Source of the DNA: Pomacea canaliculata
Taxonomy: Eukaryota > Mollusca > Gastropoda > Architaenioglossa > Ampullariidae
Reading direction: 5' to 3'
Assembly: GCF_003073045.1 (NCBI RefSeq)
Contig: NC_037592.1
Location: 10,754,007-10,818,006 of the forward strand
DNA length: 64,000 nucleotides
Part shown: positions 1 through 47,358 of the stretch, in pieces
Position numbering within the stretch: position 1 is the first letter of the stretch
Layout of the letters: each line of letters begins with the position of its first letter
The notes under the pieces: generated by a model
Seen by the model: only the letters and a program-made list of their open reading frames with translations
What the model was told of the DNA's origin: nothing
Databases searched by the model: none
Translations under genes and position numbers: made by a program

Positions 1-69
1 ACGACGTTAAATGGTGTATTGCCTTTTTCTTTCTTCTATATGTTGAACCCCCTTTTGATGGTTCGGTTG
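1..69 (-). CDS. Partial exon E3' (5' part) of the minus-strand exon family
   Basis: The sequence matches the first part of the exon at 41991-42157. On the minus strand it follows a clear splice acceptor (a T-rich tract ending in TTTTTTCAG, reverse complement of 70-82), and the window start cuts it. It belongs to the diverged E3' type rather than the E3 type of the array at 27-41 kb. Only this E3 part of the exon module is present here: the sequence to the right leaves the module at about 232, so E1 and E2 are missing. Product unknown. Confidence 0.55.
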
Positions 70-232: not shown

Positions 233-1370
233 GCAACCTTCTCATAACTCCAAGACACACTAAATGCATATAATCTAATGGAAACTGTGAAACCATTCCT
301 AAGAGTTCTGAGAGGAGATTCTCCAGTTTTGTGATTTGAAAAGCACATTTCATCAAATTGAGCATCCGTTCGAGGGAACAGCCAAGCTCAGGGTAAACAA
401 CCTTTCCATCCTAAAATCCTTTTTGTACACACTTTTCACACGCCATAATATCGTGAATGACCTTTCACTTGCTTTACAAATGCGCAAGCTGGTGCATCAC
501 TGATAAAACAAGACAAATTAATCTGTACACACTGAGGGATACCTTCTTGTGACGGTAAGGGGGTTGTTACCTCTGTAGATGTGGTTATCACCTTTTCCCG
601 TGCATGAGTGAGAATGTGCACCCTCAGTATTGTAGGTGCTAGCGTGATTTGATGTGCAACCTGAGTATCCTAGCCACTTGACTGTGTTTTCTTGCTGGCT
701 GTGTCAAATAGTTGACTTGAGTTTTACATTCATAGAGTTCATGCCATGTCAGGATGGTTAACTGCAGTTATGATTATGATTTTTGCCTTATGATTTAGTG
801 AACAGATAAGTGTGATAACTTGTTGCTGTGTAAAACTGTTATTGTGATTTAAGTTGCAGTTTTGGAACTGCTGTAGACCAGCCTGCGTGCGGTCTTAGTA
901 TCTGCATTTCATAATATTTGGTGTATGCTAGTGTAACTCTGATATCGTTGTGTACGAGGGAAGTGTATGGTTCAAACTGCTTAATTTGGAAGTTTCGTGT
1001 ATTGCTATTTATTTTTGAAGTTTTGGTGTATAATAATTACTTGGACCTCCCAACCTGAAGTGATCTCGTGTTTTGTTATTGGAAAGAATGCGCATGTCCA
1101 ACTGTTGGTCGTGACACTTCTAGTTGCACAGGCCCTTGCTGTAATTTTGTCATATCCCTTACAAAGTCGTGTAAAAACATATTAACATCTTCGGGTTTTC
1201 TCTCCCCACAGTACAAGCCAATTACAAAAGGGTCAGTTTCTACAGGACTATATTTTCTCCCCAGAATAGGCCAAAACTGATTACATGAGGAGTGAAAGAG
1301 TGGCAGACCATCATATTTACTTGTAGGAAAATGAGCAGCGTTGATCAGTTTAGAACTGGACCTTCAAGGG
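233..1370 (-). pseudogene. Relic of a minus-strand transposase-like gene (DAPARAF / PLDYMHLVCLG family)
   Basis: Minus-strand reading gives recognisable blocks in order. Near 1370-1080 there is an NIDGLPLFHSS...QFWPILG...PFVIGLYCG block, clearest in copy B at 43793-43494. Near 620-430 there is SDAPACAFVKQVKGHSRYYG. At 300-235 a block reads VSQFPLDYMHLVCLGVMRRL. From memory, this order is typical of a transposase-like family scattered through invertebrate genomes. I cannot assign its superfamily safely; a TNP2/EnSpm-like layout was considered. The frame changes several times and about 400 bp (650-1060) between blocks shows no matching code, so it is an intron or decayed. The relic ends abruptly at MRRL at the edge of the exon-array sequence. 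Confidence 0.6.
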
Positions 1371-24757: not shown

Positions 24758-26824
24758 AACCATCCTAAGAGTTCTGAGAGGAGATTCTTCCAGGTTTTGT
24801 GATTTGAAAAGCACATTCATCAAATTGAGCACCGTTACGAGGGAAAACGGCCAAGTCAGGGTAAAACAACCTTCTAATTCCTAAAATCCTTTTTGTACAC
24901 ACTTTTTCACACGCCAACTAATATCGTTGAATTGACCTTTCCTTGTCTCTACAAACGGCAAGCTGGTGCATCACACTGATGACACAAGACAAATTAAACT
25001 CTGTACCACACTGAGGGATAACCTTCTTGGACGGTTAAGGGGTTGTTACTCTGTAGAATGTGGTTGTACCTTTTTCCGTGGCATGAGTGAGAATGTGCAA
25101 CACCTCAGTATTGTAGTGCTAGCTGACTTGATGTGCAACCTTGAGTATCCTAGCCACTTGGGACTGTGTTTGTCATTGCTCAGCTGTCTGTCAAATAGTT
25201 GACTTGAGTTTTTACATTCATACGGTATCATGCCATGTCAGGATGGAACTGTAGTTATGATTATATTTTGCCTATACTTTAGTGAAAGCAATAAGTGTAT
25301 AAACTTTGTTGCTGTTGCCTTAACACTGTTTATTGTGGATTACAGTGCAGTTTTGGAACAACTGCTCGTAGACCAGGCCTAGCGTGCTGGTTTAGTATCT
25401 GTCATTCCTCAAAGTATTTCGGTGTATTGCGTCGAGTGTTAAACAGCTTAGATATCGTATGTGTCGAGGGGGAAGGTGTATGGATTTATCCAAGACTGCT
25501 TACTTTTATGGAAGGTCTTACGCTGGTATTCGCCCTAAACCTTTATATCTTTTTTCATGAAGGTTAGTCGGCTTCTACAAAGATGAAGTGTAACATAGTC
25601 ACTCTAGGGGACTTAATCCTCAGCCGAACCTGAAGATCTCACGCCGCTGAGATTCCTGATGATCTCATTAAGGAGACCCACTCAGTCATTATGGCGTCAG
25701 ATGATACTGCAAAAAGACCTGTTGGCCCTCAGTGACTCCTTCCTAGTTCGCACAGGCCCTTCTGCTGCTAATCTTTCTAGCGTCTAGTATACTCTCTTAC
25801 ACAAGTGCGGGTTAAAACAACATTATTGATGACAGTCTGGTATTTCACTCCCCCACATTATCAAGCTACAATTACTAAAAAGGTCAGTTTTCTCTGACAG
25901 GACTATTATTTTCTCCCAGAATAGGCCACACTGATTCACATGCAGGAAAAGTGAATAAGATGTTGGCCAGAGACCACCTCAATATTTACTTGTAGGAAAT
26001 GACGCAGTGTTAGATCCAGTTAGATGGAACCTTCAAGACCATCTGCAGGGTTAAAATTAGACCTTCGAATATCTCCGCTTTTCGATTGCATGAGAGATGG
26101 GATCCCTACGATGCTGAGATTGCGCCTATCTTTACTGCACAGAGGAGCCAAAAGCATATCGATTACCTCTATCAGAAATATCACCAGTAACAAATTACTG
26201 CCTTTCCAGCGTGAATTTAACCCTTAGACGATTATAAAAAAGTTATTTATTTCATCCAAAGCCTGGTTTTCAAACGTAACTCCTTTGGATCTCTTGACAA
26301 TGAAACAAACAAGCAGAGAGGTTTGTCTACGTCATAACGCTTTGTTCTATCCCTTGAGTTGACCCTGAGAAATTGGATCGATCACTAAATGTGACACCTT
26401 AAGCTCTTATTGATACAACCGATCGTTAAAGAGGAACTCCTTGTCTGAGTTTGTGTTTAGCTAGTTGCAGGATGATACAGGCATCAAACGCCCTGCTACC
26501 CAGGCATTAGTAGCTTTTACACATTGGTAGCCGCTTTTAGCTACACACATATCAGTACGAAGCATTGGTTATCTTGGCGCCACAATTACTGGCACCAGAG
26601 GCTGTGTCTCTAACAGTTTTTTTGCAGGAGTTGGTCTGTTGGGAGGATGCAGAGGTTTAAAAGTGATATCATCACAAAGTGAATTGAAGGTCATCACCAA
26701 ATCGAACAGGACTTAGTGAAATGCACTGGCAGTGGCTGCAGATGTTTGCTATTAAACAATAACTAATATGTATCTCGCCAGAGATGTTATATTTTATTTA
26801 TCTGGATAGTCTCCTCATTGCACG
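24757..26824 (+). repeat. Segmental duplication, copy C (noisy, ends in gap)
   Basis: Matches copy A from about 289 to 2025 in the same orientation: the minus-strand transposase relic (24757-25950) and the start of the P-like transposase relic (25990-26824). Copies A and B agree with each other where C differs, and C's differences are mostly single-base indels. Unpolished sequence is the likeliest reason. It runs straight into the N gap. Confidence 0.88.
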
Positions 26825-26924
26825 NNNNNNNNNNNNNNNNNNNNNNNNNNNNNNNNNNNNNNNNNNNNNNNNNNNNNNNNNNNNNNNNNNNNNNNNNNNN
26901 NNNNNNNNNNNNNNNNNNNNNNNN
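26825..26924. other. Assembly gap of exactly 100 N
   Basis: One hundred N bases, the usual placeholder for a gap of unknown size. Copy C of the duplication ends on its left and the A/B exon array begins on its right. The true distance and even adjacency are unknown. Confidence 0.99.
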
Positions 26925-29900
26925 TAGTGTATGTAACTAAATATTTCCCTTGAGGCTCTCTGGTTAGTGCGCGTGATTACTATTGGTAAGCAGACAAAGT
27001 CACTGATTGAGCAACTTGGGACTTTTTCTGTCCCGGCTGGGCCAAGCCCAAATGGAGCCGTTTAAGTTATTCAATCTCAATGTATCTGATAGGGAAACGC
27101 TTCAGTCTCTAACATTCAAGGTTATAGGCCAAAGAATCCTGAAGTCTTGTTGTGAAGAAAATTCCCGTCATGAATAGCATAGTAAACCTTTTAAAGAGAT
27201 GAAATTTGGCAACAGTTTAGAGTGATTCGTGAATAAATAAATGAATGTCCTGGAATTTTAAATTTGATCTCAGGCATGCTGTTTGTAATTTTGCTGGCAT
27301 GTTTCAACAATTATTTACAAAACTTGCTTCCTACTATGGCCATAGGGCATGGGAAAGCAATTTGTCCCTCTTCCTTCAAGAGCGGGTCTCTTCTGTTCAA
27401 TGGCAATCCTTCCTCTTGTGAACTCTTGATCTGCGCAAAGAAATTGGTAGTACCGCTGGTGATCTCGAGAATGGCATCATCTCAAATCGTTCTCATATAA
27501 CTTTTAATTTACCAATTTCTAAAAGAAGAAAGACTACTTATTCTTCTGGGGGGGACCAAAATGATGTTGTAACTAAATATTTCCTTAGCTTTGGTTTATA
27601 GTCCATGTGAAGGAATTCGTATTTTGATTTCCCGTAGCTGTGGAGTGTGCGAGTGTACATGGTAGCAGAAAGTCATCTGATGTTGATGCCAACTTCAGAC
27701 TGTTGGTCTGGCCAAGCCCACCGATTATTTCATATCTCAATGTATTCTGTTATTTCCGGGAACGCCAGCACACATTCAAAAAGCGTCCTATTATAGTAGA
27801 TCCGAAGTCTTTGTTGCATTATTAAACTTTTTCAGATATTAATACCAATTCTACAGTAACGTTTTTCTTAGTAAGACATGTTGTGTCTAAAAGGTCGAAC
27901 AGTGTTATAGAGAATTATTCTTTGAATTAAAGATAAATGAAATGTCCAGGTTTTAAATATTGATCTCTAGCATGCTGTGTTCATCTTTTCTGCATGTTTA
28001 AATTGGACAAAACTGTTCCTCTATGACCTAGGACATGGGGGCAGATATGTGTCCCTCTACTCACTCAGGGGTCTCAATTGTCTTTCTGCATCTCTTCTCT
28101 CTTTGGCTGTTGTCTGGAATATATTAAAATTTGGTGTAGACTCAGTTGTGTTGAATATTGAGGCTTTGGGTTGTAGTCGCATTACTATGGTGACTGATTT
28201 GAGGCCAACACTTGTGGCTGGCAAGCCACGATATTCAATCTCAATGTTCTCATATTTCAAAAGGCAAGAGACCAGTCTTTTGATGATAAAGTTGTCATTA
28301 ATAGAATTCTTATGTTTTGGCAACACATTTCCGATAAAGAAGAAAGACATACTTCCTTCGGGTCTCTTCTTTCTATCCTCTTCGTTGGGACCAAATTGTT
28401 TGTAACTAAACAAATTACTTTCCATTGTAGGCTATGTCACTGTTTGAGTCGGCTAAGTATACAATGTATTATGGAGTCAAAAGGCCAAGAGACCAAGTTC
28501 TTGATGATAAAGTGTTGTCTAAATTAATAGCAATCAGTAACTTTTTAAAGAGATGATTTTGGCAAACAGTTTAGAGTTGATTGTGAATAAAGATTAAATG
28601 AATGTCCTGGTTTTGAAATTTGATCTCAGGCATGCTGTTTTTTAATTTTCTGCATGTTTAACTATTTACAAAGACTTGTTCCTCTATGGGCCTAGGGCAT
28701 TGGGGCAATTTGTCCCTCTTACTTCGGGGTCTCTTCTTTCTGGCATCCTTCTCTTGTGCTGTTGTCTGGAAAAAATGGTAGACCGTTGGTATGAGAATGT
28801 CATCATCTCAATGTTCTCATATAACTGAATTTACAATTTTCTAAAAGAAGAAAGACTACTCTTCTGGGGACCAAATGTGTTGTAACTAAATATTTCCTTG
28901 AGGCTTTGGTTAGTGTGCATTATATGGAAAGCAGAAAGTCACTGATTTGAGGCCAACTTAGAACTTGTGGGCTGGCCAAGCCCACCGATTATTTCAATCT
29001 CATGTATCTGATAGGGAAACGCCAGCACACATTCAAAAGGCCAAGAGACCAAGTCTTTTTGATGTAAATTTGTCATTAATAGCAATCAGTAACTTTTTAA
29101 AGAGATGTTTGGCAACAGTTTAGAGTTGATTATGAATAAAGATAATGAATGTCTGGTTTTTAAATTTGATCTCAGGCATGCTGTTTTAATTTTCTGCATG
29201 TTTCAAACTATTTACAAAACTTGTTCCTCATGCCTAGGGCATGGGGCAGTTTGTCCCTCTTCCTTCGGGGTCTCTTCTTTTGGATCCTTCCTCTTGTGCT
29301 GTTGTCTGGAAAAAATGGTTAGACCGTTGGTATGAGAATTTCATCATCTCATGTTCTCATATAACTGAATTTACACTTTCTAAAAGAAGAAGACTACTTA
29401 TTCTTCTGGGGACCAAATGTGTTGTAACTAAATATTTCCTTGAGCTTTGGTTAGTGCGCATTACTATGGACAGAAAGTCATGATTTGAGGCCAACTAGAC
29501 TTGTGGCTGGCCAAGCCCACCGATTATTTCAATTCAATTATCTGATTAGGGAACGCCAGCACACATTCAAAAGGCCAAGAGACCAAGTCTTTTGATGATA
29601 AATGTTGTCATTAATAGCAATTCAGTACTTTTCTAAAGAGATGTTTTGGCAACAGTTTAGAGTTGATTATGAATAAAGATAAATGGAATGTCCTGGTTTT
29701 AAATTTGATCTCAGGCATGCTGTTTTCATTTTCTGCATGTTTCACTATTTACAAAACTTGTTCCTCTATACAGGACCTTAGAGCCTTATAGTTAATGGCT
29801 TTATGAATGGTTTACCTTTTTAGATTTGATGAACTGGTCCATGTTTTGATGAGAAGTAAGCTTAATGGCAGGATTTCTTCTAATGTCAAGCCTGCTGCCA

Positions 29901-30771
29901 TTGTTTTAATGAAACCAGCGAGATGATGGATAGCCTGTCTTTTACGTCTGTTAAAGGGAGCCGCCTTTTGATGTTTCATTTGCTGAAAAAATAAACACGC
30001 AAAAAGACTTCTTACACAGTGAAGAAAAGAATAGGTGAACTGCAAATATTTATGTTATCCATACACGCTTCGGGAAACTTTCCTCACTCACTCTCGTTAT
30101 TCACGCTCTTTCATCTGTTTTTTTAATTATTTTCTTCGCTCTAGCTAATAAACTTCAATTTTTTAAAAATTATAAAAATGCGAATGAAAAATATCCCCCC
30201 CCGCCCCAGCGTCCCATATATAATGCCTTATCCAACTTGGTTGAGTGGCGCGAACATCAAACAACTGCACACGGCAAACTCATTACTAATTCAACTAATA
30301 GAAAACTGAAATATTGAATTTAGACATGGAATTAATAAATAAGTATTATATTTTACTTAGAGTATATATAAGTTAAAATGAGAACGTTCTGGTAGTGTAC
30401 GTACATGCTCTTTCTGGGTGAGCCTCGATCCTACATTTCCGTCGCTATCGGACTGCAAATAATTTTTTTAAAAGGCCTTAATTAAGTGTATAGGCTCCAT
30501 ATGTGTATGCTTAGTAAGCTTACTAAACCAACTAATTTTTTTTTTAAAAAAAGACATTTACATGTACATATTTCAAACCTATTATATAAGGTAAATAAAA
30601 ATTAGAAGAAAATAAGGAACATACCTCTTCATGGCAAACGCTTCTTTCCTTTTGCTATTTAAAAAAAAAAGAGAAAAAAAGTCATTTCAAAAATTATAAA
30701 AACATTAGATCTGAAACATTTAAAGAATTTTTCCTCCAAGCTCATTTTAAAATCTATAATGTCATGGAAAA
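26925..30771 (-). repeat. Exon array block 0 (noisy monomers A plus linker B)
   Basis: Monomers of the ~547-bp A family, recognised by ATGGTAGACCGTTGGTATGA, start at about 28775 and 29313. Earlier, noisier ones lie near 27440 and 28110. Linker B covers about 29773-30771. Indels are dense near the gap and fall off to the right. One stretch at 27977-28540 looks rearranged relative to the monomer consensus. Minus-strand exons are recognisable in the linker: E3 at 29816-29982 (167 nt) and E1 at about 30625-30654. E2 near 30400-30455 is distorted. Confidence 0.85.
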
Positions 30772-33307
30772 ATGGTAGACCGTTGGTATGAGAATTTCAT
30801 CATCTCAATGTTCTCATATAAGTGAATTACAATTTCTAAAGAAAAAGACTACTTATTCTTCTGGGGGACCCAAATGTGTTGTAACTAAATATTTCCTTGA
30901 GGCTTTGGTTAGTGTGCATTACTATGGAGCAGAAAGTCACTGATTTGAGGCCAACTTAGACTTGTGGCTGGCCAAGCCCACCGATTATTTCAAATCTCAA
31001 TGTATCTGATAGGGAAACGCCAGCACACATTCAAAGGCCAAGAGACCAAGTCTTTTGATGATAAATGTTGTCATTAATAGCAATCAGTAACTTTTTAAAG
31101 AGATGTTTTGGCAACAGTTTAGAGTTGATTATGAATAAAGATAAATGAATGTCCTGGTTTTAAATTTGATCTCAGGCATGCTGTTTTAATTTTCTGCATG
31201 TTTCAACTATTTACAAAACTTGTTCCTCTATGCCTAGGGCATGGGGGCAATTTGTCCCTCTTCCTTCGGGGTCTCTTCTTTCTGGCATCCTTCCTCTTGT
31301 GCTGTTGTCTGGAAAAAATGGTAGACCGTTGGTATGAGAATTTCATCATCTCAATGTTCTCATATAACTGAATTTACAATTTCTAAAAGAAGAAAGACTA
31401 CTTATTCTTCTGGGGACCAAATGTGTTGTAACTAAATATTTCCTTGAGGCTTTGGTTAGTGCGCATTACTATGGAGCAGAAAGTCACTGATTTGAGGCCA
31501 ACTTAGACTTGTGGCTGGCCAAGCCCACCGATTATTTCAATCTCAATGTATCTGATAGGGAAACGCCAGCACACATTCAAAAGGCCAAGAGACCAAGTCT
31601 TTTGATGATAAATGTTGTCATTAATAGCAATCAGTAACTTTTTAAAGAGATGTTTTGGCAACAGTTTAGAGTTGATTATGAATAAAGATAAATGAATGTC
31701 CTGGTTTTAAATTTGATCTCAGGCATGCTGTTTTAATTTTCTGCATGTTTCAACTATTTACAAAACTTGTTCCTCTATGCCTAGGGCATGGGGGCAGTTT
31801 GTCCCTCTTCCTTCGGGGTCTCTTCTTTCTGGCATCCTTCCTCTTGTGCTGTTGTCTGGAAAAAATGGTAGACCGTTGGTATGAGAATTTCATCATCTCA
31901 ATGTTCTCATATAACTGAATTTACACTTTCTAAAAGAAAGAAAGACTACTTATTCTTCTGGGGACAAATGTGTTGTAACTAAATATTTCCTTGAGGCTTT
32001 GGTTAGTGCGCATTACTATGGAGCAGAAAGTCACTGATTTGAGGCCAACTTAGACTTGTGGCTGGCCAAGCCCACCGATTATTTCAAATCTCAATGTATC
32101 TGATAGGGAAACGCCCAGCACACATTCAAAAGGCCAAGAGACCAAGTCTTTTGATGATAAATGTTGTCATTAATAGCAATCAGTAACTTTTTAAAGAGAT
32201 GTTTTTGGCAACAGTTTAGAGTTGATTATGAATAAAGATAAATGAATGTCCTGGTTTTAAATTTGATCTCAGGCATGCTGTTTTTCATTTTCTGCATGTT
32301 TCAACTATTTACAAAACTTGTTCCTCTATGACCTTAGAGCCTTATAGTTAATGGCTTTATGATGGTTTACCTTTTAGATTTGATGAACTGGTCCATGTTT
32401 TGAATGAGAAGTAAGCTTATGGCAGGATTTCTTCTAATGTCAAGCCTGCTGCCATTGTTTTAATGAACCAGCGAGATGATGGATAGCTGTCTTTTACGTC
32501 TGTAAAGGGAGCCGCCTTTTGATGTTTCATTTGCTGAAAAAAATAAACACGCAAAAAGACTTCTTACACAGTGAAGAAAGAATAGGTGAACTGCAAATAA
32601 TTTATGTTATCCATACACGCATTCTGAAAACTTTCCTCACTCACTCTCGTTATTCACGCTCTTTCATCTGTTTTTTTAATTATTTTTCTCGCTCTAGCTT
32701 AAACTTCAATTTTTTAAAATTATAAAATGCGAATGAAAAATATCCCCCCCCCCCCAGCGTCCCATATATAATGCCTTATCCAACTTGGTTGAGTGGCGCG
32801 AACATCAAACAACTGCCACACGCAAACTCATTACTAATTTCATTACTAATAAAATGAATATTGAATTTAGACATGGAATTAATAAATAAGTATTATATTT
32901 ACTTTAGAGTATATATAAGTTAAATAAACGTTCTGTATTGTACGTACATGCTCTTCTGGTGAGCCTCGATCCTGATCACTTCCGTCGCTATCGACTGCAA
33001 ATAATTTTTTTTAAAAGCCTTAATTAACGTGTATAGGCATCCCATATGTGTATGCTTAGTAACTACTAAACACTAATTTTTTTTTTAAAAAAGACATTTA
33101 CATGTACATATTTCAACCTATTATATAAGGTAAATAAAATTAAAAGAAACATAAGAACATACCTCTTCATGCAAACGCTTCTTTCCTTTTGCTATTTAAA
33201 AAAAAAAGAGAAAAAAAGTCATTTCAAAAATTATAAAACATTAGATCTGAAACATTTAAGAATTTTTTTCCTCCAAGCTCATTTTAAAATCTATAATGTA
33301 TGGAAAA
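30772..33307 (-). repeat. Exon array block 1 (three A monomers plus linker B)
   Basis: A monomers start at 30772, 31318 and 31865 (spacing 546-547 bp); linker B is about 32329-33307. Minus-strand exon candidates: E1 33163-33191, E2 near 32947-32994 (one or more indels), E3 32371-32533 (163 nt against 167 elsewhere, so out of frame as assembled), E4 31781-31855 and 31234-31308. Monomers are more than 97% alike by eye. Confidence 0.92.
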
Positions 33308-36300
33308 ATGGTAGACCGTTGGTATGAGAATTTCATCATCTCAATGTTCTCATATAACTGAATTTACAATTTCTAAAAGAAGAAAGACTACTTATTCTTC
33401 TGGGGACCAAATGTGTTGTAACTAAATATTTCCTTGAGGCTTTGGTTAGTGCGCATTACTATGGAGCAGAAAGTCACTGATTTGAGGCCAACTTAGACTT
33501 GTGGCTGGCCAAGCCCACCGATTATTTCAATCTCAATGTATCTGATAGGGAAACGCCAGCACACATTCAAAAGGCCAAGAGACAAGTCTTTTGATGATAA
33601 ATGTTGTCATTAATAGCAATCAGTAACTTTTTAAAGAGATGTTTTGGCAACAGTTTAGAGTTGATTATGAATAAAGATAAATGAATGTCCTGGTTTTAAA
33701 TTTGATCTCAGGCATGCTGTTTTAATTTTCTGCATGTTTCAACTATTTACAAAACTTGTTCCTCTATGCCTAGGGCATGGGGGCAGTTTGTCCCTCTTCC
33801 TTCGGGGTCTCTTCTTTCTGGCATCCTTCCTCTTGTGCTGTTGTCTGGAAAAAATGGTAGACCGTTGGTATGAGAATTTCATCATCTCAATGTTCTCATA
33901 TAACTGAATTTACACTTTCTAAAAGAAGAAAGACTACTTATTCTTCTGGGGACCAAATGTGTTGTAACTAAATATTTCCTTGAGGCTTTGGTTAGTGCGC
34001 ATTACTATGGAGCAGAAAGTCACTGATTTGAGGCCAACTTAGACTTGTGGCTGGCCAAGCCCACCGATTATTTCAATCTCAATGTATCTGATAGGGAAAC
34101 GCCAGCACACATTCAAAAGGCCAAGAGACCAAGTCTTTTGATGATAAATGTTGTCATTAATAGCAATCAGTAACTTTTTTAAAGAGATGTTTTGGCAACA
34201 GTTAGAGTTGATTATGAATAAAGATAAATGAATGTCCTGGTTTTTAAATTTGATCTCAGGCATGCTGTTTTCATTTTCTGCATGTTTCAACTATTTACAA
34301 AACTTGTTCCTCTATGCCTAGGGCATGGGGGCAATTTGTCCCTCTTCCTTCGGGGTCTCTTCTTTCTGGCATCCTTCCTCTTGTGCTGTTGTCTGGAAAA
34401 AATGGTAGACCGTTGGTATGAGAATTTCATCATCTCAATGTTCTCATATAACTGAATTTACAATTTCTAAAAGAAGAAAGACTACTTATTCTTCTGGGGA
34501 CCAAATGTGTTGTAACTAAATATTTCCTTGAGGCTTTGGTTAGTGTGCATTACTATGGAGCAGAAAGTCACTGATTTGAGGCCAACTTAGACTTGTGGCT
34601 GGCCAAGCCCACCGATTATTTCAATCTCAATGTATCTGATAGGGAAACGCCAGCACACATTCAAAAGGCCAAGAGACCAAGTCTTTTGATGATAAATGTT
34701 GTCATTAATAGCAATCAGTAACTTTTTAAAGAGATGTTTTGGCAACAGTTTAGAGTTGATTGTGAATAAAGATAAATGAATGTCCTGGTTTTAAATTTGA
34801 TCTCAGGCATGCTGTTTTAATTTTCTGCATGTTTCAACTATTTACAAAACTTGTTCCTCTATGCCTAGGGCATGGGGGCAATTTGTCCCTCTTCCTTCGG
34901 GGTCTCTTCTTTCTGGCATCCTTCCTCTTGTGCTGTTGTCTGGAAAAAATGGTAGACCGTTGGTATGAGAATGTCATCATCTCAATGTTCTCATATAACT
35001 GAATTTACACTTTCTAAAAGAAGAAAGACTACTTATTCTTCTGGGGACCAAATGTGTTGTAACTAAATATTTCCTTGAGGCTTTGGTTAGTGCGCATTAC
35101 TATGGAGCAGAAAGTCACTGATTTGAGGCCAACTTAGACTTGTGGCTGGCCAAGCCCACCGATTATTTCAATCTCAATGTATCTGATAGGGAAACGCCAG
35201 CACACATTCAAAAGGCCAAGAGACCAAGTCTTTTGATGATAAATGTTGTCATTAATAGCAATCAGTAACTTTTTAAAGAGATGTTTTGGCAACAGTTTAG
35301 AGTTGATTATGAATAAAGATAAATGAATGTCCTGGTTTTAAATTTGATCTCAGGCATGCTGTTTTCATTTTCTGCATGTTTCAACTATTTACAAAACTTG
35401 TTCCTCTATGACCTTAGAGCCTTATAGTTAATGGCTTTATGATGGTTTACCTTTTTAGATTTGATGAACTGGTCCATGTTTTGAATGAGAAGTAAGCTTA
35501 ATGGCAGGATTTCTTCTAATGTCAAGCCTGCTGCCATTGTTTTAATGAAACCAGCGAGATGATGGATAGCCTGTCTTTTACGTCTGTAAAGGGAGCCGCC
35601 TTTTGATGTTTCATTTGCTGAAAAAATAAACACGCAAAAAGACTTCTTACACAGTGAAGAAAGAATAGGTGAACTGCAAATAATTTATGTTATCCATACA
35701 CGCATTCTGAAAACTTTCCTCACTCACTCTCGTTATTCACGCTCTTTCATCTGTTTTTTTAATTATTTTCTCGCTCTAGCTATAAACTTCAATTTTTTAA
35801 AATTATAAAATGCGAATGAAAAATATCCCCCCCCCCCCCCAGCGTCCCATATATAATGCCTTATCCAACTTGGTTGAGTGGCGCGAACATCAAACAACTG
35901 CCACACGCAAACTCATTACTAATTTCATTACTAATAAAATGAAATATTGAATTTAGACATGGAATTAATAAATAAGTATTATATTTACTTTAGAGTATAT
36001 ATAAGTTAAATAAACGTTCTGTATTGTACGTACATGCTTCTTTCTGGTGAGCCTCGATCCTGATCACTTCCGTCGCTATCGGACTGCAAATAATTTTTTT
36101 AAAAGCCTTAATTAACGTGTATAGGCATCCATATGTGTATGCTTAGTAACTACTAAACCACTAATTTTTTTTTTTAAAAAAAGACATTTACATGTACATA
36201 TTTCAACCTATTATATAAGGTAAATAAAATTAGAAGAGAACATAAGGAACATACCTCTTCATGCAAACGCTTCTTTCCTTTTGCTATTTAAAAAAAAAAA

Positions 36301-36399
36301 GAAAAAAAGTCATTTCAAAAATTATAAAACATTAGATCTGAAACATTTAAGAATTTTTTTCCTCCAAGCTCATTTTAAAATCTATAATGTCATGGAAAA
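33308..36399 (-). repeat. Exon array block 2 (four A monomers plus linker B)
   Basis: A monomers start at 33308, 33854, 34402 and 34949; linker B is about 35409-36399. The last monomer of every block is cut short just before the E4 position, where the linker begins (CTCTATGACCTTAGAGCC instead of CTCTATGCCTAGGGC). A C homopolymer of variable length (35827-35840 here) lies inside every linker. Confidence 0.94.
33770..36283 (-). CDS. Minus-strand exon module (block 2), three E4 copies
   Basis: Exons matching the block 3 module: E1 36255-36283, E2 36034-36083 (50 nt, one extra T in a CTTCTTT run, so out of phase as assembled), E3 35451-35617 (167 nt, open), and three candidate last exons E4 at 34865-34939, 34318-34392 and 33770-33844. 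E4 copies vary at the GGACAAA(C/T)TGCC codon (Thr or Ile). If transcribed as a unit, splicing could choose among three almost equal ends. Function unknown. Confidence 0.5.
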
Positions 36400-38396
36400 A
36401 TGGTAGACCGTTGGTATGAGAATTTCATCATCTCAATGTTCTCATATAACTGAATTTACAATTTCTAAAAGAAGAAAGACTACTTATTCTTCTGGGGACC
36501 AAATGTGTTGTAACTAAATATTTCCTTGAGGCTTTGGTTAGTGCGCATTACTATGGAGCAGAAAGTCACTGATTTGAGGCCAACTTAGACTTGTGGCTGG
36601 CCAAGCCCACCGATTATTTCAATCTCAATGTATCTGATAGGGAAACGCCAGCACACATTCAAAAGGCCAAGAGACCAAGTCTTTTGATGATAAATGTTGT
36701 CATTAATAGCAATCAGTAACTTTTTAAAGAGATGTTTTGGCAACAGTTTAGAGTTGATTATGAATAAAGATAAATGAATGTCCTGGTTTTAAATTTGATC
36801 TCAGGCATGCTGTTTTCATTTTCTGCATGTTTCAACTATTTACAAAACTTGTTCCTCTATGCCTAGGGCATGGGGGCAGTTTGTCCCTCTTCCTTCGGGG
36901 TCTCTTCTTTCTGGCATCCTTCCTCTTGTGCTGTTGTCTGGAAAAAATGGTAGACCGTTGGTATGAGAATTTCATCATCTCAATGTTCTCATATAACTGA
37001 ATTTACACTTTCTAAAAGAAGAAAGACTACTTATTCTTCTGGGGACCAAATGTGTTGTAACTAAATATTTCCTTGAGGCTTTGGTTAGTGCGCATTACTA
37101 TGGAGCAGAAAGTCACTGATTTGAGGCCAACTTAGACTTGTGGCTGGCCAAGCCCACCGATTATTTCAATCTCAATGTATCTGATAGGGAAACGCCAGCA
37201 CACATTCAAAAGGCCAAGAGACCAAGTCTTTTGATGATAAATGTTGTCATTAATAGCAATCAGTAACTTTTTAAAGAGATGTTTTGGCAACAGTTTAGAG
37301 TTGATTATGAATAAAGATAAATGAATGTCCTGGTTTTAAATTTGATCTCAGGCATGCTGTTTTCATTTTCTGCATGTTTCAACTATTTACAAAACTTGTT
37401 CCTCTATGACCTTAGAGCCTTATAGTTAATGGCTTTATGATGGTTTACCTTTTTAGATTTGATGAACTGGTCCATGTTTTGAATGAGAAGTAAGCTTAAT
37501 GGCAGGATTTCTTCTAATGTCAAGCCTGCTGCCATTGTTTTAATGAAACCAGCGAGATGATGGATAGCCTGTCTTTTACGTCTGTAAAGGGAGCCGCCTT
37601 TTGATGTTTCATTTGCTGAAAAAATAAACACGCAAAAAGACTTCTTACACAGTGAAGAAAGAATAGGTGAACTGCAAATAATTTATGTTATCCATACACG
37701 CATTCTGAAAACTTTCCTCACTCACTCTCGTTATTTCACGCTCTTTCATCTGTTTTTTTAATTATTTTCTCGCTCTAGCTATAAACTTCAATTTTTTTAA
37801 AATTATAAAATGCGAATGAAAAATATCCCCCCCCCCCCCAGCGTCCCATATATAATGCCTTATCCAACTTGGTTGAGTGGCGCGAACATCAAACAACTGC
37901 CACACGCAAACTCATTACTAATTTCATTACTAATAAAATGAAATATTGAATTTAGACATGGAATTAATAAATAAGTATTATATTTACTTTAGAGTATATA
38001 TAAGTTAAATAAACGTTCTGTATTGTACGTACATGCTCTTTCTGGTGAGCCTCGATCCTGATCACTTCCGTCGCTATCGGACTGCAAATAATTTTTTTAA
38101 AAGCCTTAATTAACGTGTATAGGCATCCATATGTGTATGCTTAGTAACTACTAAACCACTAATTTTTTTTTTTAAAAAAAGACATTTACATGTACATATT
38201 TCAACCTATTATATAAGGTAAATAAAATTAGAAGAAACATAAGGAACATACCTCTTCATGCAAACGCTTCTTTCCTTTTGCTATTTAAAAAAAAAGAGAA
38301 AAAAAGTCATTTCAAAAATTATAAAACATTAGATCTGAAACATTTAAGAATTTTTTTCCTCCAAGCTCATTTTAAAATCTATAATGTCATGGAAAA
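36400..38396 (-). repeat. Exon array block 3 (two A monomers plus linker B)
   Basis: A monomers start at 36400 and 36947; linker B is about 37407-38396. This is the shortest complete block (1997 bp) and the cleanest sequence. It is nearly identical to blocks 2 and 4 apart from monomer number. Confidence 0.94.
36863..38280 (-). CDS. Minus-strand exon module (block 3): E1-E2-E3-E4, protein of unknown function
   Basis: Four exons with consensus splice signals. E1 38252-38280 (acceptor TTTAAATAG, donor GTATGT) encodes KGKKRLHEE. E2 38033-38081 (acceptor TTATTTGCAG, donor GTACGT) encodes SDSDGSDQDRGSPERA. E3 37449-37615 (acceptor TTTTTTCAG, donor GTAAAC) encodes 55 residues with YRRKRQAIHHLAGFIKTMAA and LEEILPLSLLLIQNMDQFIK. 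E4 36863-36937 (acceptor TTTTTTCCAG) encodes TTAQEEGCQKEETPKEEGQ, then APMP and a stop. Phases agree at every junction: E1 to E2 phase 0, E2 to E3 phase 1, E3 to E4 phase 0. Acidic, basic/helical and charged tail parts follow each other. I do not recognise the family. The 5' exon that should supply one base to E1 is not in the window. Confidence 0.6.
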
Positions 38397-41300
38397 ATGG
38401 TAGACCGTTGGTATGAGAATTTCATCATCTCAATGTTCTCATATAAGTGAATTTACAATTTCTAAAAAGAAAAAGACTACTTATTCTTCTGGGGACCAAA
38501 TGTGTTGTAACTAAATATTTCCTTGAGGCTTTGGTTAGTGTGCATTACTATGGAGCAGAAAGTCACTGATTTGAGGCCACTTAGACTTGTGGCTGGCCAA
38601 GCCCACCGATTATTTCAATCTCAATGTATCTGATAGGGAAACGCCAGCACACATTCAAAAGGCCAAGAGACCAAGTCTTTTGATGATAAATGTTGTCATT
38701 AATAGCAATCAGTAACTTTTTAAAGAGATGTTTTGGCAACAGTTTAGAGTTGATTATGAATAAAGATAAATGAATGTCCTGGTTTTAAATTTGATCTCAG
38801 GCATGCTGTTTTAATTTTCTGCATGTTTCAACTATTTACAAAACTTGTTCCTCTATGCCTAGGGCATGGGGGCAATTTGTCCCTCTTCCTTCGGGGTCTC
38901 TTCTTTCTGGCATCCTTCCTCTTGTGCTGTTGTCTGGAAAAAATGGTAGACCGTTGGTATGAGAATTTCATCATCTCAATGTTCTCATATAACTGAATTT
39001 ACAATTTCTAAAAGAAGAAAGACTACTTATTCTTCTGGGGACCAAATGTGTTGTAACTAAATATTTCCTTGAGGCTTTGGTTAGTGCGCATTACTATGGA
39101 GCAGAAAGTCACTGATTTGAGGCCAACTTAGACTTGTGGCTGGCCAAGCCCACCGATTATTTCAATCTCAATGTATCTGATAGGGAAACGCCAGCACACA
39201 TTCAAAAGGCCAAGAGACCAAGTCTTTTGATGATAAATGTTGTCATTAATAGCAATCAGTAACTTTTTAAAGAGATGTTTTGGCAACAGTTTAGAGTTGA
39301 TTATGAATAAAGATAAATGAATGTCCTGGTTTTAAATTTGATCTCAGGCATGCTGTTTTCATTTTCTGCATGTTTCAACTATTTACAAAACTTGTTCCTC
39401 TATGCCTAGGGCATGGGGGCAGTTTGTCCCTCTTCCTTCGGGGTCTCTTCTTTCTGGCATCCTTCCTCTTGTGCTGTTGTCTGGAAAAAATGGTAGACCG
39501 TTGGTATGAGAATTTCATCATCTCAATGTTCTCATATAACTGAATTTACAATTTCTAAAAGAAGAAAGACTACTTATTCTTCTGGGGACCAAATGTGTTG
39601 TAACTAAATATTTCCTTGAGGCTTTGGTTAGTGTGCATTACTATGGAGCAGAAAGTCACTGATTTGAGGCCAACTTAGACTTGTGGCTGGCCAAGCCCAC
39701 CGATTATTTCAATCTCAATGTATCTGATAGGGAAACGCCAGCACACATTCAAAAGGCCAAGAGACCAAGTCTTTTGATGATAAATGTTGTCATTAATAGC
39801 AATCAGTAACTTTTTAAAGAGATGTTTTGGCAACAGTTTAGAGTTGATTATGAATAAAGATAAATGAATGTCCTGGTTTTAAATTTGATCTCAGGCATGC
39901 TGTTTTAATTTTCTGCATGTTTCAACTATTTACAAAACTTGTTCCTCTATGCCTAGGGCATGGGGGCAATTTGTCCCTCTTCCTTCGGGGTCTCTTCTTT
40001 CTGGCATCCTTCCTCTTGTGCTGTTGTCTGGAAAAAATGGTAGACCGTTGGTATGAGAATTTCATCATCTCAATGTTCTCATATAACTGAATTTACACTT
40101 TCTAAAAGAAGAAAGACTACTTATTCTTCTGGGGACCAAATGTGTTGTAACTAAATATTTCCTTGAGGCTTTGGTTAGTGCGCATTACTATGGAGCAGAA
40201 AGTCACTGATTTGAGGCCAACTTAGACTTGTGGCTGGTCCAAGCCCACCGATTATTTCAATCTCAATGTATCTGATAGGGAAACGCCAGCACACATTCAA
40301 AAGGCCAAGAGACCAAGTCTTTTGATGATAAATGTTGTCATTAATAGCAATCAGTAACTTTTTTAAAGAGATGTTTTGGCAACAGTTTAGAGTTGATTAT
40401 GAATAAAGATAAATGAATGTCCTGGTTTTTAAATTTGATCTCAGGCATGCTGTTTTCATTTTCTGCATGTTTCAACTATTTACAAAAACTTGTTCCTCTA
40501 TGACCTTAGAGCCTTATAGTTAATGGCTTTATGATGGTTTACCTTTTTAGATTTGATGAACTGGTCCATGTTTTGAATGAGAAGTAAGCTTAATGCAGGA
40601 TTTCTTCTAATGTCAAGCCTGCTGCCATTGTTTTTAATGAAACCAGCGAGATGATGGATAGCCTGTCTTTTACGTCTGTAAAGGGAGCCGCCTTTTGATG
40701 TTTCATTTGCTGAAAAAATAAAACACGCAAAAAGACTTCTTACACAGTGAAGAAAGAATAGGTGAACTGCAAATAATTTATGTTATCCATACACGCATTC
40801 TGAAAACTTTCCTCACTCACTCTCGTTATTCACGCTCTTTCATCTGTTTTTTTAATTATTTTCTCGCTCTAGCTATAAACTTCAATTTTTTAAAATTATA
40901 AAATGCGAATGAAAAAATATCCCCCCCCCCCAGCGTCCCATATATAATGCCTTATCCAACTTGGTTGAGTGGCGCGAACATCAAACAACTGCCACACGCA
41001 AACTCATTACTAATTTCATTACTAATAAAATGAAATATTGAATTTAGACATGGAATTAATAAATAAGTATTATATTTACTTTAGAGTATATATAAGTTAA
41101 ATAAACGTTCTGTATTGTACGTACATGCTCTTTCTGGTGAGCCTCGATCCTGATCACTTCCGTCGCTATCGGACTGCAAATAATTTTTTTAAAAGCCTTA
41201 ATTAACGTGTATAGGCATCCATATGTGTATGCTTAGTAACTACTAAACCACTAATTTTTTTTTTAAAAAAAAGACATTTACATGTACATATTTCAACCTA

Positions 41301-41488
41301 TTATATAAGGTAAATAAAATTAGAAGAAACATAAGGAACATACCTCTTCATGCAAACGCTTCTTTCCTTTTGCTATTTAAAAAAAAAGAGAAAAAAAGTC
41401 ATTTCAAAAATTATAAAACATTAGATCTGAAACATTTAAGAATTTTTTTCCTCCAAGCTCATTTTAAAATCTATAATGTCATGGAAAA
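38397..41488 (-). repeat. Exon array block 4 (four A monomers plus linker B)
   Basis: A monomers start at 38397, 38943, 39490 and 40037; linker B is about 40501-41488. Same composition as block 2, so block number changes by whole monomers (3, 4, 2, 4, 1 from left to right after the noisy block 0). Unequal exchange is the likely cause. Confidence 0.94.
38859..41372 (-). CDS. Minus-strand exon module (block 4), three E4 copies
   Basis: E1 41344-41372 (29 nt), E2 41125-41173 (49 nt) and E3 40543-40709 (167 nt, but with one lost and one gained base inside, so locally shifted). E4 candidates lie at 39953-40027, 39406-39480 and 38859-38933. Splice signals are as in the block 3 module. The compensating single-base indels in G and T runs look like sequence error. 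Confidence 0.5.
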
Positions 41489-42860
41489 ATGGTAGACCGT
41501 TGGTATGAGAATTTCATCATCTCAATGTTCTCATATAAGTGAATTTACAATTTCTAAAAGAAAAAAGACTACTTATTCTTCTGGGGACCAAATGTGTTGT
41601 AACTAAATATTTCCTTGAGGCTTTGGTTAGTGCGCATTACTATGGAGCAGAAAGTCACTGATTTGAGGCCAACTTAGACTTGTGGCTGGCCAAGCCCACC
41701 GATTATTTCAATCTCAATGTATCTGATAGGGAAACGCCAGCACACATTCAAAAGGCCAAGAGACCAAGTCTTTTGATGATAAATGTTGTCATTAATAGCA
41801 ATCAGTAACTTTTTAAAGAGATGTTTTGGGCAACAGTTTAGAGTTGATTATGAATAAAGATAATGAATGTCCTGGTTTTAAATTTGATCTCAGGCATGCT
41901 GTTTTCATTTTCTGCATGTTTCAACTATTTACAAAACTTGTTCCTCTATGACCTTAGAGCCTTATAGTTACTGGCTTTATGATGGTTTACCTTTTTATCT
42001 GTAATAAATCGTGTCATACGATCTATTAGTATATTACTGAGAGGAAGGATTTCCTCAAATTGCAAGGTTTCTGCCATGGTGGCAATATAAGACGTTAAAT
42101 GGTGTATTGCTTTTTTTTTTCTTCTGTATGTTGAGCCCCCTTTTGATGGTTCGGTTGCTGAAAAAATAAACACGCAAAAAGACTTCTTACACTCCGTACC
42201 TGGTGTTTGGTATCGATCAGTGAAGAAGAATAGGTGAAACTGCAAATAATTTATGTTATCCATACACGCATTCTGAAAACTTTCCTCACTCACTCTCGTT
42301 ATTCACGCTCTTTCATCTGTTTTTTTAATTATTTTCTCGCTCTAGCTATAAACTTCAATTTTTAAAATTATAAAATGCGAATGAAAAATATCCCCCCCCC
42401 CCCCAGCGTCCCATATATAATGCCTTATCCAACTTGGTTGAGTGGCGCGAACATCAAACAACTGCCACACGCAAACTCATTACTAATTTCATTACTAATA
42501 AAATGAAATATTGAAATTTAGACATGGAATTAATAAATAAGTATTATATTTACTTTAGAGTATATATAAGTTAAAATAAACGTTCTGTATTGTACGTACA
42601 TGCTCTTTCTGGTGAGCCTCGATCCTGATCACTTCCGTCGCTATCGGACTGCAAATAATTTTTTTAAAAGCCTTAATTAACGTGTATAGGCATCCATATG
42701 TGTATGCTTAGTAACTACTAAACCACTAATTTTTTTTTTTAAAAAAAGACATTTACATGTACATATTTCAACCTATTATATAAGGTAAATAAAATTAGAA
42801 GAAACATAAGGAACATACCTCTTCATGCAAACGCTTCTTTCCTTTTGCTATTTAAAAAAA
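41489..42860 (-). repeat. Exon array block 5 (one A monomer plus variant linker B')
   Basis: A single A monomer (41489-41950) and a linker that matches the other linkers except for 41991-42157, the diverged exon E3', and about 24 extra bases near 42193-42217. At 42860, just beyond the acceptor tract of exon E1, the sequence changes sharply into segmental-duplication copy B. Confidence 0.93.
41991..42847 (-). CDS. Minus-strand exon module (block 5) with diverged exon E3'
   Basis: E1 42819-42847, E2 42600-42648 and E3' 41991-42157 share splice sites and phases with the other blocks. E3' is also 167 nt but encodes a clearly different peptide: YRRKKKAIHHLTSYIATMAE and FEEILPLSNILIDRMTRFIT, about 34 of 55 residues equal to E3 with no gaps. 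The introns beside it match other blocks almost perfectly. No E4 follows before the next linker, so an E3' transcript would have to splice to an E4 in block 4 or skip onward (E3' to E1 would be out of phase). Upstream of E1 lies duplication copy B, not a partner exon. Confidence 0.6.
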
Positions 42861-43793
42861 AATAATATCGTGAATGACCTTTCACTTGCTTTACAAACGC
42901 GCGAGCTGGTGCATCACTGATAGAACAAGACAAATTAATCTGTACACACTGAGGGATACCTTCTTGTGACGGTAAGGGGGTTGTTACCTCTGTAAATGTG
43001 GTTATCACCTTTTCCCGTGCATGAGTGAGAATGTGCACCCTCAGTATTGTAGGTGCTAGCGTGATTTGATGTGCAACCTGAGTATCCTAGCCACTTGACT
43101 GTGTTTTCTTGCTGGCTGTGTCAAATAGTTGACTTGAGTTTTACATTCATAGAGTTCATGCCATGTCAGGATGGTTAACTGCAGTTATGATTATGATTTT
43201 GCCTTATGATTAGTGAACAGATAAGTGTGATAACTTGTTGCTGTGTAAAACTGTTATTGTGGATTTAAGTTGCAGTTTTGGAAACTGCTGTAGACCAGCC
43301 TGCGTGCGGTCTTAGTATCTGCATTTCATAATATTTGGTGTATGCTAGTGTAACTCTGATATCGTTGTGTACGAGGGAAAGTGTATGGTTCAAACTGCTT
43401 AATTTGGAAGTTTCGTGTATTGCTATTTATTTTTGAAGTTTTCGTGTATAATAATTACTTGGACCTCCCAACCTGAAGTGATCTCGTGTTTTGTTATTGG
43501 AAAGAATGCGTATGTCCAACTGTTGGTCGTGACACTTCTAGTTGCACAGGCCCTTGCTGTAATTCTGTCATATCCCTTACAAAGTCTTGTAAAAACATAT
43601 TAACATCTTCGGGTTTTCTCTCCCCACAGTACAAGCCAATTACAAAAGGGTCAGTTTCTACAGGACTATATTTTCTCCCCAGAATAGGCCAAAACTGATT
43701 ACATGAGGAGTGAAAGAGTGGCAGACCATCAATATTTACTTGTAGGAAAATGAGCAGCGTTGATCCAGTTAGAACTGGACCTTCAAGGGCCAT
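42861..43793 (-). pseudogene. Minus-strand transposase-like relic, copy B
   Basis: Same gene relic as at 233-1370. The 100-codon open frame 43793-43494 contains NIDGLPLFHSSCNQFWPILG and DPFVIGLYCGERKPEDVNMF; 43038-42880 contains SDAPARAFVKQVKGHSRYY. The final PLDYMHLVCLG part is absent: at 42861 the relic runs directly into the acceptor tract of exon E1. Copy B keeps the family-typical DAPARAF where copy A has DAPACAF. Confidence 0.6.
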
Positions 43794-44640
43794 CTGCAGG
43801 GTTAAAATTTAGACCCTTGAATGTTCGCCTTTCGATGCATGAGATGGCATCCTACGATGCTGAGATTGGCTATTTTACTGCACAGCAGGAGCCAAAAAGC
43901 ATATGATACTCTAAGAAATACAGGTATACTTCGCCTTCCAGGTCAATCTACCCTTAGAGATAATAAAAATTTTTATCATCCAAAGCCTGGTTTTCAAACG
44001 AACTCGCTGGATGATTTGAAGAAAAAAGCAGAGAGTTTAGTACATCATCAACGCTTTGTCGTCTTGTTGCATGACGAAATGACAATTAAATGTGACCTAG
44101 TTTTGATAAACGTTAAGGGGAACTTGTTGAGTTTTTTGGTAGTCAGGATGTACAGGCATCAACCCCTGCTACCCATGCATTAGTATTTACATTGTAGGCT
44201 TAACTACAAATATCAGTACAAGCATTGGTTTCTTTGGCGCACAGTTACTGCAGATGCTTTGTTCACACTTTTTTGGCAGGCAGTTGGTCTTGTTGAGGAA
44301 GCAGGGTTTAAAGTGATATCATCCACAAGTGATAAGGCCTCACCAAATCAAAGGCTCTATGAAATGCATGGCAGTGGTGCAGATGTTTGCTATAAAACAA
44401 TAAATCTGTTTGCCAGAGAGAGAGATATATATTTTTTTCTGATGTTCCTCACTTACTCAAAACAGTGAGAAACTATATAATTCTGGATCAGGTCGGCAGA
44501 CACGCTATCTTTGGTTAAATGGTCAGCATCTGCTTTGGAAGCATGTCATTGATATCTTTAACAGAGATGCATCTAGTCAGCCGTACAGAACTAAACTTAT
44601 GATCATGTATATCTGACACCTAATTCTATCATGAATATTA
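43760..44640 (+). pseudogene. P-element/THAP9-like transposase relic, copy B
   Basis: Better preserved than copy A. The frame 43821-44183 keeps ILRLPGQSTLRDNKNFYHPK through RFVVLLHDEMTIKCDLV to SFLVVRMYRH; 44259-44468 keeps LFWQAVGLVEEAGFKVISST and KASPNQRLYEMHGSGADVC. A third part (44470-44615) encodes RQTRYLWLNGQHLLWKHVID. Frame changes between parts and the missing DNA-binding end make it non-functional as assembled. Confidence 0.75.
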
Positions 44641-44913
44641 GTAAATAAAGATGATACAAATTTAACAAGGATATACATACATTATGTCAACTGAGTGTGT
44701 ATTAATTTTGTGATAGCAATTTAAATTCATATGGGTTTAGTGAGGGAGTGGGGACAATAAAATTACTATCTTCATACTTTTAATAATAATAATAACAACC
44801 AACTTTCCCAATGGGCAATTTAAATGGGAGGTGTGCTCTGTTTCCAATATATATTTTAAAAAAATCATTCCCATGCACACCTACACATCACACGCACACA
44901 CACTGCTGACAGT

Positions 44914-45591: not shown

Positions 45592-45597
45592 TTCTCA

Positions 45598-47120: not shown

Positions 47121-47358
47121 TAATGCTCGAGTGTCCCCCCGGAGGATCATTACCTTGTCGAGGTCGGGGGCCTTGTGTGTGTCGATGACCCTGAGAGCTA
47201 TACCGGGCAGGGTCACCCAAGCCGGGCAGGTCAAAGGGTAGATACCAGACGAAACATGATCCTTGGTCCTCCAGGTTGGGGTTGGCACAGGCTAACAACC
47301 CTGTCCCATAAAATACAAAAATGTTACGGAAACAGCGACAGAGAAAACTACCACTAAT

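What the first reader, a model, noticed from the sequence alone, without database searches (positions are those of the whole stretch)
28775..42860. Higher-order tandem array that is really an array of gene exons on the minus strand
What looks like a satellite (A monomer 547 bp, linker B 990 bp) contains four splice-bounded exons whose phases agree (0, 1, 0) and whose peptides look protein-like: an acidic SDSDGSDQ segment, a basic helical segment, and a charged tail with a stop. Agreement of three phases with good acceptors and donors is unlikely by chance. I know no family with this sequence.
Basis: partly seen in the sequence, partly recalled or inferred. Interest (0 to 1): 0.85.

Follow-up and report, generated by a model that had tools for sequence, protein, structure and literature searches.

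The report
Snail exon cassettes between near-identical introns
What looks like junk satellite DNA in an apple snail chromosome is a repeated stretch of protein-coding exons whose coding parts have drifted far apart while the introns between them stayed almost identical, and relatives of these exons sit beside homeobox exons on other chromosomes.

Summary
Observation confirmed. The 547/990-bp array carries four minus-strand exons with compatible phases. Exon 3 (E3) is coding: three copies encode the same 55 aa with 8-9 third-codon-position changes and none at positions 1 or 2. In 66 of 66 pairs of 12 E3 copies, third positions differ more than both adjacent intron stretches. In six variant units introns 1 and 2 differ by 0-4.2% from the reference while E3 differs by 33-38%. 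Exon 2 varies from 31 to 79 nt, keeping its phase in 13 of 19 matches. The family is large: 47 E3 matches, all on C3; a distant form has 52 matches on C3, C6, C11. On C6/C11, 32 of 42 such exons have a homeodomain hit within 5 kb on the same strand. Transposase-like fragments (name recalled) accompany 12 of 20 clusters. The genome is Pomacea canaliculata. E3 is modelled as a two-helix hairpin. Best reading: a tandem exon-cassette array of a rapidly evolving, homeodomain-linked, mobile-element-associated family; introns homogenised by recombination, exons kept distinct. Expression, splicing and the first exon are unshown.

The parts
26927..42862 (-). whole array of A (547 bp) and B (about 1 kb) units; left end meets the N gap 26825-26924
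38252..38280 (-). E1 (29 nt, phase 1 in, 0 out), KGKKRLHEE; further copies starting at about 30654, 33191, 36283, 41372, 42847
38033..38081 (-). E2 (49 nt, phase 0 in, 1 out), SDSDGSDQDRGSPERA; further copies starting 30452, 32994, 36083 (these three with indels), 41173, 42648
37449..37615 (-). E3 type A (167 nt, phase 1 in, 0 out), helical hairpin; intact copy also at 35617-35451
41991..42157 (-). E3 type B, intact, 62% aa identity to type A, between near-identical introns
40543..40709 (-). E3 type A copy with two compensating single-base indels
29810..29986 (-). E3 type A copy with frame breaks in the indel-rich part
32365..32537 (-). E3 type A copy with frame breaks in the indel-rich part
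36863..36937 (-). E4, last coding exon, TTAQEEGCQKEETPKEEGQTAPMP*; 11 copies read from the E4 acceptor, starting 28765-40027, 9 of them intact (I or T at one site)
43542..43739 (-). transposase-like fragment T1 upstream of the array (family name recalled)
42862..42960 (-). fragment T2 of the same gene, cut at 42862 where the polypyrimidine tract of E1 begins
1124..1315 (-). second T1 copy in the left duplicate of the flank
2..67 (-). 5' part of an E3 type B exon at the window edge, continuing left of the window (L040)

Best explanation
The array is a tandem amplification of the 3' exons of a rapidly evolving snail gene family. Shown: E3 (and, by phase-preserving length changes, E2) behave as protein-coding exons under purifying selection; units carry different E3 versions between near-identical introns; relatives on C6 and C11 are interleaved with homeodomain exons; transposase-like fragments accompany 12 of 20 clusters. 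Inferred: the ancestral protein was a homeodomain protein with an acidic linker (E2) and a C-terminal two-helix hairpin (E3), probably a dimerisation or partner-binding module, spread with a large mobile element whose transposase is now broken here. Inferred: unequal recombination in the repeated introns multiplies and shuffles units and homogenises introns; an E3 type can be converted only by its own rarer type, so exons keep old differences while purifying selection holds each protein. Inferred: because E3 enters in phase 1 and leaves in phase 0 (167 nt), only one E3 fits between an E2 and an E4 in frame, so the cassettes would act as alternatives (one per transcript) or as separate short genes.
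For: Coding: dN/dS (NG86) 0 to 0.34 among correctly registered E3 pairs, with silent sites saturated in many of them (one copy, F2_L040, was entered one codon out of register and its rows are void); B copies differ at 8-9 third positions and at no first or second position; E2 phase kept in 13 of 19 matches. Intron/exon contrast: of eight units compared with the reference, six variant units differ by 0-4.2% in intron 1, 0-1.9% in intron 2 and 32.9-37.7% in E3; one same-type unit differs by 0% in all three; one noisy unit (L039_u5) differs by 20.5%, 13.7% and 38.6%; 66 of 66 pairs. Tandem E3 spacing of 245 bp, three per unit, in L039. Family. Homeodomain link: 4 of 4 tested C6 exons pass the PF00046 cut-off; 32 of 42 E3-like exons on C6/C11 within 5 kb of a homeodomain hit on the same strand, against a mean of 0.148 for places drawn at random one by one; at cluster level 8 of 9; HD and E3-like exon about 100 bp apart on one strand in L044. 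Transposase-like fragment on the same strand within 50 kb of 12 of 20 clusters, 1.1-1.4 kb upstream of E3 at C3 1.92, 10.75, 10.79 and 10.83 Mb. Recombination: array joins the T2 fragment abruptly at 42862; flank duplicated 42.4 kb away at 98.3%; a D-type exon at C3:1.917 Mb has 13 differences, all in its first 83 of 167 bases. Hairpin: helices 5-29 and 33-54, mean pLDDT 82.4, pTM 0.44.
Against: No RNA evidence. No first exon or start codon found for E1-E4. No homeodomain exon was found in the C3 segments held, window included, so the link is to relatives, not to this array. Of 34 E3 copies with both splice sites 15 fail length or frame, some probably assembly noise. 8 of 20 clusters have no T1 match within 50 kb; at C3 10.72 Mb the nearest lies downstream. 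Flanks of the D exon at C3:1.917 Mb differ at 1 of 82 bases from those 8.8 Mb away, further than local conversion would be expected to reach. The random control ignores that the exons are clustered; it used 42 of the 43 C6/C11 rows (one overlapping row left out) and a homeodomain list of the best 150 of 271 candidates. Transposase identity rests on recall: 0 Pfam and 0 NCBIfam families for the 586-aa relative.
Confidence: 0.6

Rival explanations
1. A once-coding family, now a dead repeat here: the exons were selected in ancestors or in other clusters, and this array is an untranscribed relic multiplied passively with a broken transposon.
For: Broken transposase-like fragments, frame breaks in 3 of 6 window copies of E3 (one more has compensating indels only), no first exon found, segmental duplication of the flank.
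Against: Two type A copies, the type B copy and 9 of 11 E4 copies in the window are intact; type B is identical in protein in three clusters despite 8-9 silent changes; frame breaks lie largely in the gap-rich, poorly polished stretch.
Confidence: 0.27
2. Ordinary non-coding satellite in which open frames and splice-like sites arose by chance.
For: High unit identity, tandem arrangement, no RNA evidence.
Against: Third-position pattern, phase-preserving E2 lengths, exon-bounded divergence.
Confidence: 0.02
3. The introns, not the exons, are the conserved product: they carry functional RNAs or control elements and are held nearly invariant, while exons drift, as in small nucleolar RNA host genes (recalled).
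For: Intron blocks still align at about 75-95% identity between C3, C6, C11, C4 and C12, while E3-like proteins of the distant members have 8-28% identity to the window's E3.
Against: No Rfam family in the window at gathering score, and only two sub-threshold mir-297 rows in 26.5 kb of relatives; the whole intron, not only blocks, is nearly identical between neighbouring units; the 78-nt inter-exon intron folds no better than shuffles, z 0.71.
Confidence: 0.06
4. Exons are diversified at the nucleotide level itself, by an exon-directed mutational process or by selection on silent sites (for example to escape small-RNA targeting), while the protein is kept.
For: Silent-site differences of 19-92% between correctly registered E3 copies against 0-6% in the adjacent 35 and 40 bases of intron, even between copies with identical protein; the contrast persists 8.8 Mb away.
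Against: Intron homogenisation by recombination explains it without a new process; the 13 changes of the D exon are clustered, as expected from conversion; changes are of mixed types, no single base signature seen.
Confidence: 0.05

Closest known systems
Snake three-finger toxin genes with accelerated segment switch in exons (ASSET), PMC2474615 (passages seen)
   Same: Introns of paralogues highly similar while exon segments differ strongly; switching restricted to exons.
   Different: Here the exon differences are mostly silent with low dN/dS, the part of the protein seen shows no secreted cysteine-rich character, and many units sit in one tandem array.
Tandem mutually exclusive exon clusters (Dscam and others), PMC6071210 (passages seen)
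   Same: Tandem homologous exons of equal length and phase, here not a multiple of three, separated by short introns (78 bp in L039).
   Different: That paper expects much weaker selection on introns than on exons; here introns are the conserved part. Exclusivity in RNA is untested.
MADF-BESS transcription factors (Pfam PF10545, PF02944)
   Same: Short C-terminal helical module with a pattern resembling BESS by eye (recalled).
   Different: The BESS search lists 4 places, none at these loci; profile comparison with the snail's own BESS motif gives hhalign probability 0.2 out of 100; none of the 74 MADF matches is at these loci.
Homeodomain gene families (PF00046)
   Same: Relatives on C6 and C11 are interleaved with homeodomain exons, many ending at position 44-46.
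   Different: No homeodomain exon found in the C3 segments held.

Membership tests
Non-coding satellite | no coding constraint | tested here: not met
Mutually exclusive exon cluster | tandem homologous exons of the same phase whose joint inclusion shifts the frame | tested here: met
   E3 167 nt, phase 1 to 0; three per unit at 245 bp in L039
Mutually exclusive exon cluster | one and only one exon used per transcript | not testable with these tools
   no RNA data
Mutually exclusive exon cluster | competing RNA pairings in the introns | tested here: inconclusive
   only one inter-exon intron folded, alone, z 0.71; pairing between introns not examined
ASSET-like gene family | introns conserved, exons diverged between paralogues | tested here: met
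ASSET-like gene family | accelerated change of the protein | tested here: not met
   dN/dS 0 to 0.34 for correctly registered pairs
BESS motif | match to PF02944 | tested here: not met
Homeodomain family | homeodomain exon in the same cluster (C6/C11 relatives) | tested here: met
   8 of 9 clusters, 32 of 42 exons
Homeodomain family | homeodomain exon in the window's own cluster | tested here: not met
   phmmer with four C6 homeodomain exons against 23 sources: hits only in L044, L061, L062, L063; only part of the C3 clusters was held
DNA transposon | intact transposase | tested here: not met
   only fragments beside the array; broken and cut at 42862
DNA transposon | terminal inverted repeats and target-site duplication | not tested
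   5' likeness of the two C6 copies compared reaches the first base of one fetched stretch, so their ends were not seen
snoRNA host gene | intronic snoRNA | tested here: not met
   no Rfam snoRNA match in the window (gathering) or in L039, L041, L042 (E up to 1)

The most novel reading that the evidence does not exclude
A germline exon-cassette system: a mobile-element-borne family of homeodomain-linked regulators in which intron-driven recombination keeps producing new orders and combinations of C-terminal interaction exons, used one at a time by splicing, in the manner of a diversity-generating locus.
Probability: 0.2. Interest if true: 0.8.

Novelty: new variant of a known kind. Interest (0 to 1): 0.6.

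Why it matters
Exons that diverge far more than their introns, mostly at silent sites and with the protein conserved, invert the usual rule and give a clean natural case for how recombination could freeze introns while preserving exon alternatives. It also shows that a region that looks like satellite can hide a large coding family (101 match rows to E3-like exons together, not all separate exons), and it points to homeodomain clusters on two chromosomes of an invasive snail that the searches did not find described.

Tried and rejected
BESS/MADF identity: looked alike by eye, rejected. Functional intronic RNA: no Rfam support, no special fold of the one intron tried. Small-RNA escape as the cause of silent divergence: considered, left as a weak rival. 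Solved structures: profile search gave one chance-level row, E 0.89; Foldseek gave 0 matches. The pattern scan for E2 used acceptor and donor contexts chosen by me; one of its 19 rows (L040 3525) lies in intron 2 and is not an exon. In one search one copy (F2_L040) was entered one codon out of register, so its 13 pairs are void. In one search four of 16 copies were dropped beforehand (frame-shifted copies B_L040b and D_L041, and F_L040 and A2_L040, each with one flank replaced). In one search one of 43 rows was left out. Literature searches listed no description of this family in the held library; papers were seen as listings except PMC6129957, PMC2474615, PMC6071210 and PMC8848322, of which I saw passages.
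Full report
WHERE IT IS. The window is C3:10754007-10818006 of a 440,159,624-base genome. Contig C6 is 31,531,291 bases, exactly the scaffold N50 that the Pomacea canaliculata genome paper prints, and C1 is 45.4 Mb, its longest scaffold (PMC6129957, passages; lengths).

THE OBSERVATION. On the minus strand the four proposed exons have usable splice sites and junction phases 0, 1, 0, and give one open peptide ending in a stop. The array runs from 26,927, at the edge of a 100-base N gap, to 42,862: 19 matches to the A monomer and 6 to the B linker. E4 is present in 11 copies that start from its acceptor, 9 of them intact. E3 is present in 6 copies: two of type A (37,615 and 35,617) and the type B copy (42,157) are intact, one (40,709) is open through two compensating indels, two (29,982 and 32,533) are broken. 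The B unit at 32.3-33.3 kb differs from the reference by 1 substitution and 21 gap bases, that at 29.8-30.8 kb by 18 and 39: the mark of an unpolished long-read consensus (inference), so broken frames there should not be read as decay.

IT IS CODING. E3 relatives elsewhere on C3 were compared codon by codon. Type B in the window, in L040 and in L041 encode the same 55 residues with 8-9 changes, all in third positions. Over 66 pairs of 12 copies (4 of 16 copies dropped beforehand, named in Tried and rejected) the median differences are 0.31, 0.18 and 0.54 at codon positions 1, 2 and 3. E2 ranges from 31 to 79 nt between relatives, yet 13 of 19 pattern matches keep length 1 mod 3; of the six exceptions four are copies in the window or L039 whose siblings are intact, one is not an exon, and one (L042, 78 nt) is a true exception as read. 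Of 34 E3 copies on C3 with both splice sites, 22 keep length 2 mod 3, 21 are open, 19 both.

INTRONS ARE THE CONSERVED PART. Eight units were compared with the reference unit. Six variant units differ by 0-4.2% in intron 1, 0-1.9% in intron 2 and 32.9-37.7% in E3; one unit with the same E3 type differs by 0% in all three; one noisy unit (L039_u5) differs by 20.5%, 13.7% and 38.6%. In the variant units the divergence rises and falls at the splice sites as far as the alignment resolves; E2 also exceeds its introns in the L039 and L040 units (8.7-20.4%). In all 66 pairs third positions differ more than the 35 intron bases before and the 40 after the exon (medians 0.54 against 0.029 and 0). Silent sites are far more diverged than introns, so positive selection on the protein is not the explanation; dN/dS is low. 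The simplest account (inference) is that introns, shared by all units, are homogenised by recombination, whereas an exon type can be converted only by its own scarcer type. A D-type exon at C3:1.917 Mb suggests exchange inside exons: its 13 differences from the 10.72 Mb copy, 10 of them at third positions, all lie in the first 83 of 167 bases, while the flanks differ at 1 of 82 bases (alignment). That this holds 8.8 Mb apart is the main awkward fact for a purely local process.

THE FAMILY. E3 finds 47 places at E up to 10, all on C3, 36 of them at E 0.001 or better. In L039 three E3 exons follow each other every 245 bp in several 1.6-kb units, separated by 78-bp introns made of the head of intron 3 and the tail of intron 2. 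Distant forms (8-62% identity to the window's E3, alignment A3) give 52 matches on C3, C6 and C11 (9, 27 and 16) and 2 on C4 and C11. No Pfam family fits: among 16 members 5 families appear weakly, each in 1 or 2 members, best E 0.0063. AlphaFold2 on the two window types gives a two-helix hairpin, helices 5-29 and 33-54, mean pLDDT 82.4, pTM 0.44, from only 2 sequences; Foldseek found no match in the PDB.

HOMEODOMAIN LINK. In the C6 relatives, four exons tested all pass the Pfam homeodomain cut-off, and many end at position 44-46, a usual homeobox intron site (recalled). Of 42 E3-like exons on C6 and C11 (of 43 rows), 32 have a homeodomain hit on the same strand within 5 kb, 15 within 1 kb; places drawn one by one at random give a mean of 0.148 and at most 2 in 1000 draws, a control that ignores clustering (the homeodomain list is the best 150 of 271 candidates). 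At cluster level 8 of 9 hold homeodomain hits. In L044 a homeodomain exon and an E3-like exon lie about 100 bp apart. None was found in the C3 segments held, so the window's array may have lost this part, have it elsewhere, or never have had it.

MOBILE-ELEMENT LINK. Beside the array, on the same strand, lie fragments of a gene I recognise from memory as a transposase-like family (no Pfam or NCBIfam model hits its 586-aa relative on C7). The first fragment has 38 matches on 11 contigs. Grouping E3-like matches into 20 clusters, 12 have it on the same strand within 50 kb and 8 do not. It lies 1.1-1.4 kb upstream of E3 exons at C3 1.92, 10.75, 10.79 and 10.83 Mb, and downstream at 10.72 Mb. Further pieces occur inside intron 2 of several relatives. 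The array joins the second fragment abruptly at 42,862, and the flank from there to 49,221 repeats window 445-6,783 at 98.3%, so this locus was itself duplicated. Two C6 copies are alike over about 6 kb upstream of this fragment, and about eight such places exist on C6 and C11 (10 match rows); their outer ends were not reached, so whether they are giant transposons or segmental duplications is open.

HOW IT LIKELY WORKS. Shown: phases allow E1-E2-E3-E4, and forbid E3-E3. Inferred: one E3 cassette is chosen per transcript, or neighbouring units are separate short genes; E2-E3 modules could also be chained in frame. Unspliced E3 runs into VNHHKASN and a stop in many copies, so E3 can also end the protein; some relatives have a stop inside or just after E3. 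The hairpin is probably an interaction module.

JUDGEMENT. Coding nature: about 0.95. Intron homogenisation with retained exon types: about 0.7. Descent from a homeodomain-linked, mobile-element-associated family: about 0.7 (set a little lower after the 12-of-20 count). Alternative use of cassettes in this array: about 0.35.

Noticed in passing
window 445-6783 and 42862-49221: Segmental duplication, 98.3% identical, about 42.4 kb apart, with a LINE-type endonuclease ORF in both copies and a reverse transcriptase match in the right one.
   Followed up: partly
window 8897-24760: Large array of a 10-base unit (TAGTTTCCCT / AGGGAAACTA) that changes strand several times, interrupted by A-rich blocks.
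   Followed up: no
window 53909-54408 and 58807-59291: Two arrays of the same 70-71-bp tandem repeat.
   Followed up: no
window 43821-44183 (+): ORF with a P-element-type transposase RNase H match, PF21787, E 1.6e-6, lying next to the transposase-like fragments on the other strand.
   Followed up: no
window 24760-33300: Stretch with many single-base indels around an N gap (26825-26924): looks like unpolished long-read consensus.
   Followed up: partly
window 55318-56433 (-): 371-aa open frame, charged and coiled-coil-like by eye, no Pfam match at E 0.01.
   Followed up: no
C6 3.06-3.09, 4.21-4.24, 6.21-6.26, 8.56-8.59 Mb; C11 7.24-7.26, 8.02, 8.98, 13.66-13.69 Mb (L044, L061-L063): Clusters of divergent homeodomain exons interleaved with E3-like exons; a separate finding worth its own study.
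   Followed up: partly
L047, L048, L049, L050, L052 (C4, C11, C12): The block that begins at E3's splice donor (GTAAACCATCATAAAGCC...) recurs on other chromosomes at about 80-94% identity; in L048-L050 (C11 17.21 and 18.73 Mb, C12) I saw no E3-like exon, whereas L047 and L052 carry one.
   Followed up: partly
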